In this document: in pieces, positions 2 to 6,225 of the stretch | Numbering within the stretch: the stretch's first letter is position 1 | Layout of the letters: each line of letters begins with the position of its first letter | Assembly: GCA_018652925.1 (NCBI GenBank) | Contig: JABIBH010000258.1 | Span: 1-6,225, forward strand | Direction of reading: 5' to 3' | Source of the DNA: a bacterium | GTDB lineage: Bacteria > Krumholzibacteriota > Krumholzibacteriia > LZORAL124-64-63 | Length of the DNA stretch: 6,225 nucleotides | Made by a program: the position numbers and the translations under genes | The notes under the pieces: generated by a model | What the model saw: the letters and a program-made list of their open reading frames with translations, nothing else | Told to the model about the DNA's origin: nothing | Databases searched by the model: none

Positions 2-1588
2 TCAGATTATATAACTGCGTTGGTAGCAGAAGATGCACTTGGCAATCCAACCGACGAAGATCTGGCAAGCTGGAGTATGGCTGTATTGATTTCCAGTCAT
101 GACTTTGGTGGCGAAGAAGTTCTTGGTGGTATCCGATGGGTCAATGAATCGTCAAGTGAGTGGAATTTTGGTGGCGGTCATTTTACAGACCGTGATCCTA
201 ATATTATTGACTTGTTGCTGGTTCCCGGTGAAGGAAAAACTGTTGGCCGCTCTCAGGATTACTTGCTGGATTACGGAACGGAAGAGGCTGTCCAGAGATT
301 GAATGACGGGCTTACACCTTGCTCAATTGAGATGTCGGCATTTGAAGATACTGGACCTCCATCAATCAATATTGTCAGAAATAATGGGGAAGTTATCAGT
401 GTTGATCCACTGTTGAATGCGCCAATTGCTTTCACTCTGGAAATAACCGATGACTATCAGGTCAGCGGTGCAACATTCAGCTATCGGTCAATGTCCTCTG
501 GCAGTCAGTGGGATGACACAACTGACATGGGCTATGTTGGTAACAACTTATGGTCTGTTGATATCCCAGCAGACTGGATCGACGAAAACCTGGTTTATTC
601 ACCAATTGACAGCACTCGCTATTTTGAATTCCAGGTAACAGCTGTTGATGCTGTTGAAAAGGAATCTGTCTCACCAGTTACAACAATGCAACTCTCGCAG
701 TCCCAAAGCAGCCTCTGGTTCGATGCGAACATGGGTGTTGAAGAGTTGAGCATGAGGCACATTGACGGCTCGGGGCTCAAGCTCGATTACAGACTGCTGG
801 ACGAAATTGTTGCTCTTTATGCAGATGAGTTTGGAGTAACTTTCTCTGCAGATTCTCTTGCAACCCTGATGACACTGGGTTGGGAAATATCATCAGTTGA
901 GCCAGCAATAAGTAACGCCAAGGCGCTGCATGATGGTGTTGCGTTGAACTGTTTCCGGACTATAAAACTGGATGCTGGGACAGCAGAATCATCTATCGAT
1001 CTGGACAATGTCTTTACAACTCCATTCTCGCTTACAATGCACTATCAGGAAGATCAACTTACCAGCAGTATGAAAGAAAACAGTGTTGGTATTTTTGAAT
1101 ATAAACCACAGGCAAACCGCTGGAGCTTGATTGGTGGTCATGTCAATGAACAGAGCAATGAAGTAACTGCGCACCTTGCCAAGGCGGGTACTTTCGGTCT
1201 GTTTTATTCCGATAAACTTGCCGTCGATGAATCAGAAGTTGTCTCTGGAATCATACTTGAACCAAATCCATTTTCACCAAATGGAGATGGCCTTTATGAT
1301 GAAACCAATATCAGTTTTTATCTGACAAGAGAAGCTTCGGTAACTGTTGAGATTTACAATATCGATGGCAGACTCTGCCAACGACTTGAAGATACTTTCA
1401 CTTTTGCAGATGAAGATCAAATTAATGGTGCTGCTCATCGCGTTGAGGGCATTATCTGGAATGGAACTGACGACAAGGGAGACAATGTCCCTTATGGAGT
1501 TTATATCATGCGATTGCTTGTAACTTATAATCAAGGTGGTGGCCGACGAACTATCGGCAGCAATCATCCTGTGGCGGTGATACGATGA
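2..1588 (+). CDS. Secreted glucodextranase-type DOMON/FlgD-like domain protein, probable glycoside hydrolase C-terminus (5' partial)
   Basis: The frame is open to the left edge, so the real start and any signal peptide lie upstream; the TTG at 20 is only an internal codon. Domains in order: nt 2 to about 337 resembles the glucodextranase C-terminal DOMON-like domain (PF09985 type), with SEWNFGGG (155-178) and DPNIIDLLLVPG (194-229) as the recognisable core. About 353-694 is an Ig-like domain (LEITDDYQVSGATFSYR, then LWSVDIPADW). About 700-1000 is unrecognised. About 1007-1210 is a beta-rich domain (FSLTMHY, then GIFEYKPQANRWSLIGG). About 1253-1585 is a FlgD-like/T9SS-like terminal domain (PNPFSPNGDG at 1262-1291, IWNGTDDKGDNVPYGVYI near 1454-1507, ending PVAVIR). 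In known proteins the DOMON-like domain follows GH15, GH13 or GH57 catalytic domains acting on alpha-glucans, so such a domain probably lies upstream; this is inference. The stop overlaps the next start by 4 nt. Confidence 0.8.
   Translation, partial: SDYITALVAEDALGNPTDEDLASWSMAVLISSHDFGGEEVLGGIRWVNESSSEWNFGGGHFTDRDPNIIDLLLVPGEGKTVGRSQDYLLDYGTEEAVQRLNDGLTPCSIEMSAFEDTGPPSINIVRNNGEVISVDPLLNAPIAFTLEITDDYQVSGATFSYRSMSSGSQWDDTTDMGYVGNNLWSVDIPADWIDENLVYSPIDSTRYFEFQVTAVDAVEKESVSPVTTMQLSQSQSSLWFDANMGVEELSMRHIDGSGLKLDYRLLDEIVALYADEFGVTFSADSLATLMTLGWEISSVEPAISNAKALHDGVALNCFRTIKLDAGTAESSIDLDNVFTTPFSLTMHYQEDQLTSSMKENSVGIFEYKPQANRWSLIGGHVNEQSNEVTAHLAKAGTFGLFYSDKLAVDESEVVSGIILEPNPFSPNGDGLYDETNISFYLTREASVTVEIYNIDGRLCQRLEDTFTFADEDQINGAAHRVEGIIWNGTDDKGDNVPYGVYIMRLLVTYNQGGGRRTIGSNHPVAVIR
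1576..1580 (+). promoter_or_regulatory. Ribosome binding site for the PorV-like gene
   Basis: GGTGA, the 3' half of the extended Shine-Dalgarno consensus, lies 4 nt before the ATG at 1585 and inside the last codons of the preceding gene. With the ATGA overlap at 1585-1588 it suggests translational coupling of the two genes. Confidence 0.5.
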
Positions 1589-2442
1589 GAAAAATACTGT
1601 TATTGCTGCTACTTATTCCGGTAATAGTTCATGCTGATTTTCGGCACTCAAGGATGGGAGCAAGGCCCAGAGCCATGGGCTCTGCATTTGTATCGTTGAG
1701 TAATGATCAGTATGCAACAATCTGGAATCCAGCCGGGCTGACGCTGGATAATCGGACTGCTGTTTCCATTACTCGCGCGTGGCCATTTTCAATTCCTGAA
1801 CTTCAGAACGACAACATGGTTCTGGATATTGCAGAGATGAAGAGTATTCATTTTGGTGCTGCATTTACCAGGCTTGGAATTGATGATATCTATTATGAGG
1901 ATACTTACAATCTGTCTGCTGCCATGGAAGTCCCTTTCATCAAAGGTCTTTCCATCGGTTCAACAGTAAAAATGCTTCGCCTTGAGGCTCCTGGTTATGA
2001 ACAGTATAATGACCCAGCCTACAACGGTGGCGATTCCGGTTTTGCTTATGATGTTGGTCTGATTTATAACAACGGTAATCCGTGGACACTTGGTGCTGCG
2101 GTTTACAATCTCAATGAACCTTATTTGCAACTGTTGAGCACAACCGTTGAATCTGATCCTGTTTATAGTCACTTTGCAATTGGTGGGAGTTATCTCTTTA
2201 GAGAGATTCTCCTGTTGAGCTGTGACCTGGGGAGCAGGGAAGGTGGCTGGGATGATAATGTTGTGCGCTTAGGCACAGAGATATGGTTTTTCGATACGCT
2301 GGCTTTACGTTCAGGCATCAATAACGGCCTTGTAACAATGGGCTTTGGATTGCAGGATAAACATTGGCAAGCTGACTTTGCATTGGAGTCCTTTATGGAA
2401 ACAGGCAATGTATACACTCTCTCATTTACAGTAAGGAACTGA
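1585..2442 (+). CDS. PorV/UPF0164-family outer-membrane beta-barrel protein
   Basis: The 285-residue product has a signal peptide (MRK, a Leu-rich core, likely cleavage after A17 in VIVHA). Residues 25-52 carry the family signature: GARPRAMGSAFVSL, then an acidic/aromatic stretch and IWNPAGL. This is the N-terminal hallmark of PorV/PorQ and UPF0164 proteins, which are FadL-like outer-membrane barrels. The rest alternates amphipathic strands and Gly/Asn/Asp turns and ends in a strand (TLSFTVRN), without the C-terminal Phe of many barrels. It is shorter than Bacteroidetes PorV, which is nearer 390 residues. In type IX secretion, PorV carries cargo bearing a C-terminal sorting domain from the translocon to the attachment complex. 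The gene directly upstream encodes a protein ending in such a domain and overlaps this start by 4 nt, so a cargo-specific partner role is plausible. UPF0164 members also occur in bacteria without T9SS, so the family alone does not prove T9SS. Confidence 0.83.
   Translation: MRKILLLLLLIPVIVHADFRHSRMGARPRAMGSAFVSLSNDQYATIWNPAGLTLDNRTAVSITRAWPFSIPELQNDNMVLDIAEMKSIHFGAAFTRLGIDDIYYEDTYNLSAAMEVPFIKGLSIGSTVKMLRLEAPGYEQYNDPAYNGGDSGFAYDVGLIYNNGNPWTLGAAVYNLNEPYLQLLSTTVESDPVYSHFAIGGSYLFREILLLSCDLGSREGGWDDNVVRLGTEIWFFDTLALRSGINNGLVTMGFGLQDKHWQADFALESFMETGNVYTLSFTVRN
2432..2437 (+). promoter_or_regulatory. Ribosome binding site deciding the GTG start at 2444
   Basis: TAAGGA sits 6 nt before GTG 2444. The nearby ATG at 2442 is in another frame and is followed at once by TGA (2445-2447), so it cannot start the gene. 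The GTG gives a textbook signal peptide directly. Confidence 0.65.
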
Positions 2443-2443
2443 T

Positions 2444-4036
2444 GTGAAACATTGGCGAATTACATTTTTGCTACTCTTTCTGATGGTTGTGTCTGCTCTG
2501 GCTGACACCCGATACGAAGGGTATTACTCAGTCTGGGCATCTGCTGATCGTAACGATGAGCAGTGGCACTTTGGCATGCCATCACACTATGCAGAAATGA
2601 AGTTTATAACTTCTCATGCAGAGGGTCTGGAGAGTTATTTCCGGCTTCGTGCGAATGCAAATTCAGATGACGATAGAACTATCGAGGCAGAGTATTACAC
2701 TCCGCCCTGGATTGCTGCTGAAGGTCATATAAAGTACCGGACCAATAATTCTGAAACGATGTTTTTCAGCAGGCAGAACCATTTCTGGATCAACGATGAA
2801 CCACTGTTTGGCCTGGTAAATGACTGGAAACTCAAAAATGATAACTGGGGCCCACAAGCCCAGGGAATCAAACATGAGTTCTGGGACAGAGACATCCCTC
2901 TTCTGGGTAAGTGGGGTGGAACTGTTGTTTACAGTGACGATGGTGGAACTTACAACTGGGGCAATGACGAAGTTGCTGCCGGTGTAGATTCCTGGATCAT
3001 AAGGACACGGAAAAACTCATGGGATGACAGAATTGTTGGTGGTCTGATGTTCTTGCGCAAGGACTGGACCGATACATCGTCACCGGAAAATACAGGTCGA
3101 CTTGGTTTAATGTATAATCAGATTTACGAAGCTGATATTGCTCTGTTTCCAAGAGACTTAATGAAGAACGGTCTTTCTTTTGGACCAGTTGATCTGGAAC
3201 AATCCCGATGGACAATGGAATATGCCTGGAGTCAGGTTCCTTACAATGAATCTGTTTATAACACTCCAACTGATCATGCTTATCTGTTTGGTGCAGAAGT
3301 GCGTGACATTCATATCGGCAATTTCATGGTACATGGTTGGTTCAATAATGCTGGTGAAAACTTCAGAGACTATATGTCCAGTCGATATGATGATGAACGC
3401 CAATATAACCAGATATATAAACACGCCGAAGCTATTTACTTTGTGCCAAGAAAAGCGATTACTGCCAAGGTAGCCTATGACAACAGACGACTGCGAATCC
3501 CCGACGAAGTAGGTCATGGCCTGCGCCCGTCTGAAGAACTTTATGCTGAACTTTATGTTGAGTTTATAAACGGATTCAAAGGCAAAACTGCATATAAACA
3601 GTGGCACGGATTTGATGCAGACACCGATGTAAATGCTTACGCAACTTACCCTGATCTGTTTGGTGAAATTTCTGTCGAGAACTTCCTTGCGAAAATCAGA
3701 TTGCAATTCAGATTGCACGATTTCAACACTTTCAGGGAGTCAACAGCGTTCGGTTTTGATATGAATGTCAATCTTACCGAAAAACTTAAAGGCTATCTGC
3801 GAATGCTCAATGCCAGCGATACCATTGAATCCAGGCAGAGTGCTTTTGCTCAACTGAAATATGACCTTGGTCCTGGTGCCGAACTCTATTTCGAATATGG
3901 AGACCCTGGCCAATCAGACGGCATAGTTTATACCGACTGGTTCATCAGCGCAGTTGATCCTGATTCTGGTGGCAGAAATCCACATGACAGAATTCTTAAA
4001 AATCGTTTGGCACTTTCATTTCGAACCTGGTTCTAA
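2444..4036 (+). CDS. Trp-rich outer-membrane beta-barrel protein of unknown function (porin-like)
   Basis: The 530-residue product starts at GTG, one nt after the previous stop. A signal peptide is clear: MKHWR, a hydrophobic core, and cleavage after A20 (VSALA then DTRYEG). The mature chain has no transmembrane helix. It shows alternating hydrophobic/polar strands rich in Tyr, Trp and Phe with Asp/Asn/Gly loops, and ends RLALSFRTWF, with the C-terminal Phe typical of barrels folded by the BAM machinery. Trp is abundant (19 residues), nine of them between residues 115 and 208. I do not recognise a named family. The N-terminal pattern (EMKFIT, YFRLRAN near 51-71) and C-terminal pattern (SAF then ELYFEYGDPG, 466-489) resemble those of the barrel in the next gene, so the two may be distant paralogues. 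A sugar or oligosaccharide porin role is inferred from the glucan-related neighbours. A non-porin structural barrel remains possible. Confidence 0.75.
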   Translation: MKHWRITFLLLFLMVVSALADTRYEGYYSVWASADRNDEQWHFGMPSHYAEMKFITSHAEGLESYFRLRANANSDDDRTIEAEYYTPPWIAAEGHIKYRTNNSETMFFSRQNHFWINDEPLFGLVNDWKLKNDNWGPQAQGIKHEFWDRDIPLLGKWGGTVVYSDDGGTYNWGNDEVAAGVDSWIIRTRKNSWDDRIVGGLMFLRKDWTDTSSPENTGRLGLMYNQIYEADIALFPRDLMKNGLSFGPVDLEQSRWTMEYAWSQVPYNESVYNTPTDHAYLFGAEVRDIHIGNFMVHGWFNNAGENFRDYMSSRYDDERQYNQIYKHAEAIYFVPRKAITAKVAYDNRRLRIPDEVGHGLRPSEELYAELYVEFINGFKGKTAYKQWHGFDADTDVNAYATYPDLFGEISVENFLAKIRLQFRLHDFNTFRESTAFGFDMNVNLTEKLKGYLRMLNASDTIESRQSAFAQLKYDLGPGAELYFEYGDPGQSDGIVYTDWFISAVDPDSGGRNPHDRILKNRLALSFRTWF

Positions 4037-4049
4037 AAACTGGCGACAT

Positions 4050-4054
4050 GGAGA
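4050..4054 (+). promoter_or_regulatory. Ribosome binding site favouring the ATG at 4060
   Basis: GGAGA lies 5 nt before ATG 4060. The in-frame ATG at 4048 would begin four residues earlier but has no good Shine-Dalgarno sequence in front, and its own codon overlaps this motif. Start 4060 is therefore preferred. Confidence 0.6.
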
Positions 4055-4059
4055 ATATA

Positions 4060-6051
4060 ATGTTGAAGTTCAAGTTTACTCTTTTGATTTTGGTTCTGGC
4101 GGCAACTTCTTTTGCCTCTGTTGACAGTGTGCCAATCGGAGTTCGATTCACTCATGAAGATTCTGGTGCGGGACAGGTGTTCCTGGCTGGTGCTTTCAAT
4201 GAATGGAGCTCTACTGCCAACCCAATGACAGACAACGATGGCACCTGGACTATCATTATGGCCCTGAAGGCTGGTGAGTATCAGTACAAGTTTGTTGTCG
4301 ATGGCAACTGGATGACTGACCCGGGAAATCCCGATTCAGCTCCAGACTCCTTTGGTGGCACAAACTCTGTAATAACTGTTAATGCCAAAGGTAAACTGGT
4401 GCCAACAGTTAAAGATGAAACCACTGGGCCGAACACAGATTTAAGTGCAAGGTTGAAGTTCTCAGGTCGCTATCTTGCCCGTTATACAGCATTCAAAAAC
4501 GTGGATAGTGACCCACGGTTCAGGATGACCAGACCAGAGCAAAAAATTGATATGAACTTCACAACTGTTGTTACCGATGTTGTAACTGCTTACTCAAGAA
4601 TCCGTCTTGATAACACGACCAGAATTAATATGAACAGTATACATTCTGAATTGAATGAAGCATCGGTTGATGTCCATCCTGGACCTTTCCACGTGAACAG
4701 CTATTGGGATATGGAAGCGTTGCAGTTGTCGGACCCGCTTGGCCTTGGTGGCGATATTGATCTCGCTGGGACTATTATGGATGATCACCTGCTGGCAGGT
4801 AAAGGAACAGCTGGAATTACTTTCGATAGCGATCCACTTGGATTCCATTATGATGCATTCTTTGCAGACGTTCATGACCTGGATTATTACAACTCGATTG
4901 AAATCTATGACAACATTGGCCGAGATGTTTTCGGTTCCAGACTGTCTCGCAAACATGGAAAATTCACTTTTGGATTGCCTATGTATATGGAACGCGATTT
5001 ACTTTGGGTAGATTTTTCTCAAGGCACCGATATCCCAGCAATGGAACAGTATCTCGCAGAAAACGATGACTCTTCAACCTGGTATGAATTTGATAATTTC
5101 GATATGAGAGCTGGTCTGGATGTTACTTATGAACTTCCAGGTAACAACAACAGTGCAAGCCTGGAATTTCTCTACAATGATCATAAACAACGGTTTGTAG
5201 TTGGAAATGAATCTGGCCCCAATAACACAAATGGCCCAGTCGATATTGAACTTATGACTCGCAACAGCAGAATATGGCATGCTGAATTTACTCATGCTCC
5301 TGAAAATGGGCACTATTTCAGTGCTGAACATACAATGACTACTGAATTTGGTGCTGAAGCAGACGAGAGTTATCTCCAAAATGTATTCAGGCATGAAAGT
5401 GTGGCCAATAAACGCACATACCTTTTGGTTATGGATGCTCAGCCAGCTAGAAATATTGATTATTCTGAAATAACCTGGTCTGAGCTTGAAGATGACTCCG
5501 AGTTCACTCTCTGGTTACAACGCTATAATGTTGAGCAGGATTACCAATCGGTGGGGCAGTTGTCGCCTGTAGGAAATGAAGTAGATAACGTGACTGCTCT
5601 GATAGCCTCGGCAAAGATTGTTGCGGGGAGCAAAAAAGAGAGCTTTGGGCGTATGGAAATTGAAGCTGCTGTCACACAACTTAATGACGACAGTATTGAT
5701 GAGTCGTTACAAATATTTGAAATAATTGGCAGGAGCAGTAGAAAGATAACACGTAGAATGTCCTTCATTACTGATGTTCGCCTGATTGAGTATCATACTG
5801 GAGATGGTGTGGACAGATTCGTTTCTCCATACCTTGGGTTCCAGTTTGTTCCCCATAAAAAACTTGAACTTGTTTTTGCGATGGGTGTAGATCCAATGGA
5901 CTTTGGCATCGATTATAATGGAAGACAAATAGGCCGATGGCTTAATCGTCGCCTATACATGGACCAGAATCCTGGAGCATCAACGCTTGATGCAGAACAG
6001 TTTCTTGCTGACACTAGAGCACTTGGCATCAGAGCCAACTTCATATTCTAG
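4060..6051 (+). CDS. Outer-membrane barrel protein with N-terminal glycogen-binding CBM48 domain
   Basis: The 663-residue product (from ATG 4060) has a signal peptide MLKFKF plus a hydrophobic core, with likely cleavage after A19 (TSFA then SVDS). Residues about 25-109 form an AMPK-beta-type CBM48/E-set domain: VFLAGAFNEW (40-49), W63, GEYQYKFVVDGNW (72-84), DP (87-88) and GTNSVITV (100-107). By eye against the AMPK beta1 glycogen-binding module, W49, K77, W84, T101 and N102 fall at or near the known sugar-contacting positions (W100, K126, W133, T148, N150), so real alpha-glucan binding is likely. After a linker (about 108-134) come some 530 residues of alternating beta strands ending ALGIRANFIF, with a C-terminal Phe as in outer-membrane barrels. 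There is no visible catalytic domain. The gene lies 23 nt after the previous stop. If the barrel is conventional, with both ends inside, the CBM48 would face the periplasm; surface display is the alternative. Confidence 0.83.
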   Translation: MLKFKFTLLILVLAATSFASVDSVPIGVRFTHEDSGAGQVFLAGAFNEWSSTANPMTDNDGTWTIIMALKAGEYQYKFVVDGNWMTDPGNPDSAPDSFGGTNSVITVNAKGKLVPTVKDETTGPNTDLSARLKFSGRYLARYTAFKNVDSDPRFRMTRPEQKIDMNFTTVVTDVVTAYSRIRLDNTTRINMNSIHSELNEASVDVHPGPFHVNSYWDMEALQLSDPLGLGGDIDLAGTIMDDHLLAGKGTAGITFDSDPLGFHYDAFFADVHDLDYYNSIEIYDNIGRDVFGSRLSRKHGKFTFGLPMYMERDLLWVDFSQGTDIPAMEQYLAENDDSSTWYEFDNFDMRAGLDVTYELPGNNNSASLEFLYNDHKQRFVVGNESGPNNTNGPVDIELMTRNSRIWHAEFTHAPENGHYFSAEHTMTTEFGAEADESYLQNVFRHESVANKRTYLLVMDAQPARNIDYSEITWSELEDDSEFTLWLQRYNVEQDYQSVGQLSPVGNEVDNVTALIASAKIVAGSKKESFGRMEIEAAVTQLNDDSIDESLQIFEIIGRSSRKITRRMSFITDVRLIEYHTGDGVDRFVSPYLGFQFVPHKKLELVFAMGVDPMDFGIDYNGRQIGRWLNRRLYMDQNPGASTLDAEQFLADTRALGIRANFIF

Positions 6052-6055
6052 GAGA
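6050..6055 (+). promoter_or_regulatory. Ribosome binding site for the lipoprotein gene
   Basis: AGGAGA overlaps the stop codon of the preceding gene (TAG 6049-6051) and lies 4 nt before ATG 6060. It is a strong site and supports this start for a gene that is cut off by the window edge. Confidence 0.65.
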
Positions 6056-6059
6056 CTTG

Positions 6060-6225
6060 ATGAGAAAGCTACTATTACCAGTTCTAATTGTGCTCCTGCT
6101 TCTGTCAGGTTGCGGTTATATGAAAATAATACGCACAAGAGTACCCCCTCCCAAAAGAGGTCCGGAAGGGAAAATTCATTTCTACTTTGAGGCACCTACT
6201 GCCAAGCATGTGAATCTTTGCGGAA
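6060..6225 (+). CDS. Lipoprotein with probable CBM48-like domain (3' partial)
   Basis: The frame runs open to the right edge, giving 55 complete codons. Residues 1-18 are a type II signal peptide: MRK, a Leu/Val-rich core, then the lipobox LSGC with C18 as the lipid-modified residue. Gly follows the Cys, so the E. coli Asp+2 inner-membrane retention signal is absent and outer-membrane location is likely. A short basic, Pro-rich linker (TRVPPPKRGPEG, 26-37) follows. Residues 38-55 (KIHFYFEAPTAKHVNLCG) match the first strands of a CBM48/E-set domain (pattern: V-x-F-x-F-x-A-P-x-A-x-x-V-x-L-x-G). The Trp and Lys that contact sugar would lie beyond the edge, so binding cannot be judged. The start is 8 nt after the previous stop, in the same operon. 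The rest of the protein is unknown; it may be a small glucan-binding lipoprotein or the front of a larger one. Confidence 0.75.
   Translation, partial: MRKLLLPVLIVLLLLSGCGYMKIIRTRVPPPKRGPEGKIHFYFEAPTAKHVNLCG

What the first reader, a model, noticed from the sequence alone, without database searches (positions are those of the whole stretch)
2..6225. Putative alpha-glucan envelope system without visible SusC/SusD
One operon combines a secreted protein with a glucodextranase-type DOMON-like domain, a PorV-like barrel, a Trp-rich barrel, a CBM48-tipped barrel and a CBM48-like lipoprotein. Bacteroidetes starch systems use a TonB-dependent SusC with SusD/E/F lipoproteins, and none of those is visible here. 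The set could be a different solution for binding, cutting and importing starch or glycogen at the outer membrane. The domain calls are read from the sequence; the joint function is inference.
Basis: partly seen in the sequence, partly recalled or inferred. Interest (0 to 1): 0.7.

Follow-up and report, generated by a model that had tools for sequence, protein, structure and literature searches.

The report
Starch-uptake barrels without SusC/SusD
This is a gene cluster whose core order recurs in five little-known bacterial phyla (as their records are titled) and that is predicted to bind starch or glycogen at the outer membrane and would likely take the sugars in through a pair of related protein barrels, without the SusC/SusD pump used by gut Bacteroidetes.

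Summary
The window is a whole 6,225-bp contig of a Krumholzibacteriota-type MAG: a 5'-cut gene (glucodextranase-type domain, T9SS-like tail), a PorV-family barrel, an unnamed barrel, a CBM48+barrel fusion and the start of a CBM48 lipoprotein. Relatives show this is the outer-membrane half of an alpha-glucan locus, next to SBP-MalF-MalG, MalK, a GH13 with tandem CBM48, a second GH13, a CBM20 protein and a debranching enzyme. The order recurs in Krumholzibacteriota and, by record title, Eisenbacteria, Cloacimonadota, Elusimicrobia and Zixibacteria. In 20 of 20 loci picked by the unnamed barrel alone in three other phyla, PorV and CBM48 genes accompany it; 18 of 20 have GH13, Mal or debranching genes; 0 of 18 control stretches do. 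SusD: 0 of 41 genomes. No TonB plug was found in the loci. Both barrels are predicted plugless (24 and 22 strands) and likely related. Import through the barrels is inference.

The parts
2..1588 (+). Gene 1 (5' cut): C-terminal 528 aa of a predicted T9SS-secreted surface protein; full-length relatives in families f1, f3 and f5 are about 1,760-2,130 aa (about 385-425 aa in f4)
   Evidence: (PF09985 in two full-length relatives, no glycosidase domain over cut-off); lengths; weak CHU_C / T9SS tail hits
11..274 (+). C-terminal part of the glucodextranase-type DOMON-like domain (PF09985)
   Evidence: residues 4-91, E 2.7e-7
1262..1522 (+). FlgD/CHU_C-like C-terminal domain, candidate T9SS sorting signal
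   Evidence: CHU_C E 1.4e-4, below cut-off; end of PorU profile E 3.2e-7, far below cut-off
1585..2442 (+). Gene 2: PorV/PorQ-family outer-membrane barrel, signal peptide by eye
   Evidence: NF033709 E 1.6e-14 (54 bits, cut-off 90)
2444..4036 (+). Gene 3: unnamed barrel, predicted 24 strands and no plug (GTG start)
   Evidence: pLDDT 91.9; best rows are usher barrels; strand count; no Pfam/NCBIfam hit
4048..6051 (+). Gene 4: CBM48 followed by a predicted 22-strand barrel, likely paralogue of gene 3's barrel
4144..4389 (+). CBM48 / AMPK-beta-type glycogen-binding domain of gene 4
   Evidence: E 5.8e-17; W53, K81, N106 in 84 of 84 rows and W88 in 83 of 84
4447..6048 (+). Barrel of gene 4, predicted 22 strands, ends in Phe
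6060..6225 (+). Gene 5 (3' cut): lipoprotein signal and first strands of a CBM48 domain
   Evidence: own g5 profile scores 62 bits on the fragment; complete relative L054:7333-7779 carries PF16561

Best explanation
Genes 1-5 encode the predicted outer-membrane half of an alpha-glucan (starch or glycogen) utilisation locus that likely takes in malto-oligosaccharides through two related, plugless barrels instead of a SusC/SusD pump. Shown: gene order, domain content, conserved CBM48 residues, neighbouring GH13 and Mal-type ABC genes in relatives, no SusD found in the genomes searched and no plug domain found in the loci. Predicted: gene 3 as a 24-strand and gene 4 as a 22-strand barrel, both without a plug; gene 4's CBM48 on the periplasmic side. 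Inferred: gene 1 would be exported by the T9SS with gene 2 as its PorV-type shuttle and would hold glucan at the surface. The GH13 and CBM48 lipoproteins would trim and hold chains at the outer membrane. Short chains would pass gene 3/gene 4, and the periplasmic CBM48 (one or two copies) would bind emerging chains and hinder back-slip. The tandem-CBM48 neopullulanase-type GH13 (signal peptide by eye, no T9SS tail) and the debranching enzyme would cut them in the periplasm, and SBP-MalFGK would bring the products into the cytoplasm.
For: Order: of 31 Krumholzibacteriota genomes with gene 3 (31 of 80), gene 2 precedes it in 28 of the 28 whose contig does not start inside gene 3. A CBM48 barrel follows in 29 of 29 with room (26 at 200 bits or more, two divergent, one as fragments at a contig end). 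Gene 5 follows in 26 of 26 with room, counting the window's fragment. SBP lies within 4 kb of the operon in 17 contigs and 14 kb away in one. The tandem-CBM48 GH13 is nearby in 17 contigs, only its GH13 end being seen in two. Test by gene 3 alone: 20 loci in three other phyla give PorV 20/20, CBM48 20/20, GH13 12/20, SBP/Mal 11/20, any GH13/Mal/GDE 18/20, plug 0/20; 18 control stretches give 1, 0, 0, 0, 0, 0 (recount). The GH13 matches neopullulanase / alpha-amylase II; catalytic motifs intact in 14 of 16 long ORFs. MalK carries OB_MalK and TOBE_2; SBP, two permeases, GDE_C and CBM20 by Pfam. SusD 0/41. SprA in 14 of 15 genomes. CBM48 site W, K, W, N conserved. Barrel models are confident; long loops on one side, short turns on the other.
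Against: All 23 genomes tested also carry TonB-receptor plug domains elsewhere, so a distant TonB receptor could do the import. No binding, transport or localisation has been measured. The one genome of 15 in which SprA was not found is the window's own MAG (MAG 76% complete). T9SS tail and PorV hits are below curated cut-offs. A large plugless pore would make the outer membrane leaky unless something fills it. In this MAG the three pieces lie on three contigs, so linkage is inferred from relatives. The lipobox script found a motif in only 4 of 8 copies of the second GH13. The only same-genus genome (G001) and 49 of 80 phylum genomes show no gene 3.
Confidence: 0.6

Rival explanations
1. The locus handles alpha-glucan, but genes 3 and 4 are non-transporting surface scaffolds that hold glucan and enzymes; import runs through a TonB-dependent receptor encoded elsewhere.
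Against: No plug hit in 645,496 bp of 35 locus contigs with a profile that recovers 20 of 20 of its seeds left out one at a time, nor in 72 named loci or 20 further loci; the 18 control stretches had none either, so plugs are sparse. A barrel pair kept in order across phyla beside an ABC importer fits a channel role better.
Confidence: 0.2
2. The barrels export something: either a T9SS accessory pore pair or an outer-membrane exit for a cell-made alpha-glucan coat.
Against: The recurrent neighbours are hydrolases, a debranching enzyme and an SBP-dependent ABC importer, that is, degradation and import. CBM48 and AMPK-type sites fit binding of ready-made glucan. Among the 18 neighbour proteins scanned with Pfam no glycosyltransferase or polymer synthase was found; not every neighbour was scanned.
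Confidence: 0.12
3. An ordinary maltoporin-type system: gene 3 or gene 4 is simply a diverged LamB-like sugar porin with Mal ABC genes.
Against: No maltoporin Pfam match in gene 3 or gene 4 or in three distant relatives of each. Predicted 24 and 22 strands, against 18 in LamB (recalled). A CBM48 fused to the barrel and a PorV/T9SS pair are not part of LamB systems (recalled).
Confidence: 0.08

Closest known systems
Bacteroides starch utilisation system (SusA-G) and SusCD utilisomes
   Same: A locus of glucan-binding lipoproteins, a second GH13 with lipoprotein-type signal, a neopullulanase-type GH13 and outer-membrane barrels; PMC7618045 (passages seen) describes SusCD, SusE/F and SusG.
   Different: No TonB plug found at the loci, no SusD (0 of 41 genomes); binding modules are CBM48 and CBM20; an SBP-dependent ABC transporter adjoins; T9SS-type secretion pair present.
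Enterobacterial maltose/maltodextrin system (LamB porin + MalEFGK)
   Same: SBP-MalF-MalG-MalK genes and no TonB receptor found at the locus.
   Different: Barrels have no LamB match, are predicted larger (24 and 22 strands), and one carries CBM48.
Caulobacter MalA (TonB-dependent maltodextrin receptor)
   Same: Outer-membrane uptake of maltodextrins; mentioned in PMC6851124 (passage seen).
   Different: MalA works with TonB/ExbB/ExbD; no plug domain is found at these loci.
Type IX secretion cargo with PorV
   Same: Gene 1 tail (CHU_C/FlgD type) next to a PorV/PorQ-family barrel; SprA in 14 of 15 genomes.
   Different: Both matches are below curated cut-offs; the pair sits in a glucan locus in front of two barrels of no named family.
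Chaperone-usher pores (FimD/PapC)
   Same: Similar 24-strand barrel outline to gene 3.
   Different: No usher Pfam match in gene 3 or three distant relatives.

Membership tests
SusC/SusD polysaccharide utilisation locus | SusC: TonB-dependent receptor with plug domain at the locus | tested here: not met
   Own plug profile, 0 hits in 35 locus contigs, 72 named loci and 20 further loci; seeds recovered 20 of 20
SusC/SusD polysaccharide utilisation locus | SusD lipoprotein | tested here: not met
   PF07980 0 of 41 genomes, PF14322 0 of 15; Bacteroides control positive in both
SusC/SusD polysaccharide utilisation locus | Surface amylase lipoprotein (SusG role) | tested here: inconclusive
   A second GH13 with an N-terminal Cys motif is next to the locus; the script found a lipobox in 4 of 8, more are seen by eye; surface exposure untested
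Maltoporin (LamB) family | Sequence membership (maltoporin Pfam family) | tested here: not met
   Gene 3: no Pfam family at E<=1; gene 4: only CBM48-type families; same for three distant relatives of each
Maltoporin (LamB) family | 18-strand barrel | tested here: inconclusive
   Models count 24 and 22 long strands; no experimental structure
Maltodextrin ABC importer (MalEFGK) | SBP, two permeases and an ATPase with OB_MalK/TOBE | tested here: met
   in relatives; own genome has SBP end-MalF-MalG on C289; MalK not sought in the own genome
TonB-dependent receptor | N-terminal plug domain in gene 4 | tested here: not met
   N-terminus is CBM48; no plug hit in the window contig
CBM48 / AMPK-beta glycogen-binding domain | Family match and sugar-contact residues | tested here: met
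   E 5.8e-17, aligned to AMPK beta-1 1z0n; W53, K81, N106 84/84 and W88 83/84; which AMPK residues contact sugar is recalled
T9SS cargo / PorV pair | Sorting-domain match over cut-off | tested here: not met
   CHU_C 22.4 of 27 bits in the window; Por_Secre_tail 20 of 23 bits in relative L047. FlgD_ig passes its cut-off in the short gene 1 of G041 (30 of 27 bits), but that model is not a T9SS model
T9SS cargo / PorV pair | T9SS translocon SprA in the genome | tested here: inconclusive
   14 of 15 genomes, but not found in the window's own 76%-complete MAG
Chaperone-usher pore | Usher sequence family | tested here: not met
   No Pfam match in gene 3 at E<=1 nor in 3 distant relatives at E<=0.01; fold resemblance only

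The most novel reading that the evidence does not exclude
A previously undescribed class of outer-membrane glycan importer: a duplicated pair of giant plugless beta-barrels (24 and 22 strands), one carrying a periplasmic CBM48 ratchet in the place where a TonB receptor has its plug, pulls alpha-glucan chains in without TonB or SusD. It is coupled to a T9SS/PorV-displayed glucan binder outside and a Mal ABC importer inside, and replaces SusCD in five or more FCB-type and Elusimicrobia lineages.
Probability: 0.35. Interest if true: 0.92.

Novelty: new variant of a known kind. Interest (0 to 1): 0.77.

Why it matters
How bacteria outside the well-studied Bacteroidota and Proteobacteria bring starch-sized sugars across the outer membrane is little known (recalled). 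This locus gives a concrete, conserved answer to test: two barrel families with no Pfam or NCBIfam name for the barrel, fixed beside CBM48 lipoproteins, GH13 enzymes and a Mal ABC importer. If the barrels transport, uptake of large glucans need not use TonB and SusD, and the five genes become a marker for starch use in Krumholzibacteriota, Eisenbacteria, Cloacimonadota, Zixibacteria and Elusimicrobia. One paper found starch/glycogen glycosidases to be the most abundant kind in a Krumholzibacteriota MAG (PMC10936416, passage).

Tried and rejected
A glycosidase in the missing part of gene 1: not found in full-length relatives L047 and L054 (only a sub-cut-off hit to the Ig-like C-terminal domain of GH2), and no PDB match at E<=0.1 for L047. 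A solved relative of gene 3 by sequence: none at E<=1. Reading gene 3 as an usher: only the barrel outline matches. Fold families absent from the VIA-align lists were not treated as excluded. A first genome-contig scan with the single protein found no relative; the alignment did. A first gene-calling pass picked antisense ORFs in high-GC contigs; it was replaced by homology-weighted calling and profiles on stop-to-stop frames.

Recount: one search counted any profile hit above threshold and gave GH13 13 of 20 and any GH13/Mal/GDE 19 of 20. Counting only each frame's best profile gives 12 and 18 of 20; the two without are short contigs (L205, 8.2 kb; L212, 11.9 kb). In L222 a CBM48-type frame lies between PorV and gene 3 (1.3 kb); in L205 only the start of gene 4 is held.

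Rows dropped or to be read with care: alignment A2 holds an antisense row (L044), so A2 was not used further; alignment A1 holds a row (L048) with N and a frame change, left as it is. In one search the two GH13 motif misses are a fused gene 4 frame (G009) and G038, whose motif was not matched. Promoter, Rfam, phage and plasmid searches were not run: they do not bear on the question. Strand counts leave out short DSSP strands (gene 3: 40-43, 170-172, 175-177; gene 4: 442-446, 458-462).

Literature: searches listed no paper whose title or abstract start describes this gene set; only passages of PMC10936416, PMC7618045 and PMC6851124 were read.
Full report
What is in the window. The window is the whole contig C27 (6,225 bp) of a 1.9-Mb, 76%-complete MAG. 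It holds one tight operon on the + strand with a 4-bp overlap and then gaps of 1, 11 and 8 bp.

Genes. Gene 1 is cut at its 5' end. It carries the C-terminal part of PF09985 (glucodextranase-type DOMON-like domain) and a CHU_C/FlgD-like tail below cut-off. The two full-length relatives scanned have the complete PF09985 domain, CarboxypepD_reg and Big_1/Invasin-type domains and no glycosidase over cut-off. Gene 2 is PorV/PorQ family, below the curated cut-off. Gene 3 has no named family. Gene 4 is CBM48 plus barrel. Gene 5 is the first 55 codons of a lipoprotein whose complete relatives (about 140 aa) carry CBM48.

Glucan link. The CBM48 of gene 4 aligns with the AMPK beta-1 glycogen-binding domain (E 3.9e-13). 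W53, K81 and N106 are kept in 84 of 84 rows and W88 in 83 of 84; that these match AMPK sugar contacts is recalled. In relatives the operon is bordered by a GH13 with several CBM48 domains (4 in this MAG's copy, 5 in L042), convergent in families f1 and f3, a second GH13, a CBM20 protein, MalK, an amylo-1,6-glucosidase and SBP-MalF-MalG. The tandem-CBM48 GH13 of this MAG (contig C367) matches neopullulanase/alpha-amylase II with the catalytic Asp/Glu/Asp motifs present. C289 of this MAG carries the SBP end, MalF and MalG. So this MAG has these parts on three contigs; that they are one locus is inferred from relatives.

Conservation. Gene 3 is in 31 of 80 genomes of the phylum. In these 31: gene 2 upstream in 28 of 28 whose contig does not start inside gene 3; a CBM48 barrel downstream in 29 of 29 with room (26 at 200 bits or more, two divergent, one as fragments at a contig end); gene 5 in 26 of 26 with room, counting the window's fragment; SBP within 4 kb in 17 contigs and 14 kb away in one (G060); the GH13 in 17 contigs, two of them showing only its GH13 end. 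The arrangement varies: SBP divergent from gene 1 in families f1 and f3, collinear after gene 5 in f5, and a short gene 1 in f4. By record title, 45 of 72 named loci hold gene 3, including Eisenbacteria, Cloacimonadota, Elusimicrobia/Endomicrobiia and Zixibacteria; those loci were found through the CBM48, so they are biased towards it. Zixibacteria rests on titles alone (L088, L091, L101; in L088 no PorV frame was found).

Test by gene 3 alone. It is found in 17 of 124 genomes of the phylum of a Cloacimonadota-titled genome (13 at E below 1e-80, 4 near 1e-3), 4 of 294 drawn from that of an Elusimicrobia-titled one and 17 of 47 of an Eisenbacteria-titled one. Of 25 strong hits not seen before I fetched 20: PorV 20 of 20, CBM48 gene 4/gene 5 20 of 20, GH13 12 of 20, SBP/MalF/MalG 11 of 20, any of GH13/Mal/GDE 18 of 20, plug 0 of 20. 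In 18 control stretches of the same genomes, chosen by arbitrary contig number (20 asked, 2 did not exist; 232,602 bp against 347,978 bp), the counts were 1, 0, 0, 0, 0, 0. The association is far beyond chance.

SusC/SusD. PF14322 0 of 15 genomes and PF07980 0 of 41, with the Bacteroides control positive in both. Plug domains exist in 23 of 23 genomes, so TonB receptors are present, but the rows shown list none on the locus contigs (the list was cut). My own plug profile (20 seeds from these genomes, 20 of 20 recovered when left out) finds none in 645,496 bp of 35 locus contigs, in the 72 named loci or in the 20 further loci.

Secretion. SprA_N is in 14 of 15 genomes tested; the one without a hit is this MAG. 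With gene 2 (PorV type) and the gene 1 tail this suggests T9SS export of gene 1; the role of PorV as shuttle is recalled.

Reading. The best reading is a Sus-like division of labour without SusC/SusD: surface binding (gene 1, gene 5, second GH13), passage through barrels 3 and 4, periplasmic CBM48 binding and GH13/debranching, then an ABC importer. Import by the barrels, direction of flow and localisation are inferred. The main rival is that genes 3 and 4 are scaffolds and a distant TonB receptor does the import. Known comparisons come from passages of PMC7618045 (SusCD, SusE/F/G), PMC6851124 (Caulobacter MalA) and PMC10936416 (starch/glycogen enzymes in a Krumholzibacteriota MAG). No paper listed by searches describes this gene set in the title or abstract start shown. 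I file it as a new variant of a known kind (a glucan utilisation locus) with a new outer-membrane part; a new importer class is possible but unproven.

Noticed in passing
G000:C289 and G000:C367 (L188, L007): The window's MAG carries SBP-MalF-MalG and the tandem-CBM48 GH13 / start of the second GH13 on two other small contigs, probably pieces of the same locus.
   Followed up: partly
L046, L047, L048, L049, L051, L053, L092: Gene 4 relatives carry two CBM48 copies in front of the barrel, one in the window: a copy-number change that may tune glucan grip.
   Followed up: partly
L103, L108, L114, L115, L119, L122, L203, L208-L212: In Eisenbacteria- and Elusimicrobia-type loci a further CBM48-type frame, mostly longer, follows gene 5.
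   Followed up: no
L067, L069, L070, L090: Records titled Latescibacterota, Gemmatimonas, Fibrobacter and Latescibacteria match contigs of the window's family or class by length; the depositors' labels conflict with each other.
   Followed up: no
P0236: A GH57 alpha-amylase carries both PF09985 (Glucodextran_C) and CBM48, which ties the gene 1 domain to alpha-glucan enzymes.
   Followed up: no
L047:12723-13991 and relatives: A conserved protein of about 380-430 aa in most copies, with a CBM20 and no enzyme domain in the copy scanned, lies next to the tandem-CBM48 GH13.
   Followed up: no
G001: The only same-genus genome (94% complete) shows no gene 3 and no gene 4 match: the locus is patchy even among close kin.
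   Followed up: no
L054:18011-19066: An ABC-3 family permease gene sits between gene 1 and the SBP gene in G056, an odd guest in the locus.
   Followed up: no
L142:11098-11982 (G030) and its counterpart in G006: A polysaccharide deacetylase / DUF3473 gene lies beyond the GH13 genes in two genomes of one genus.
   Followed up: no
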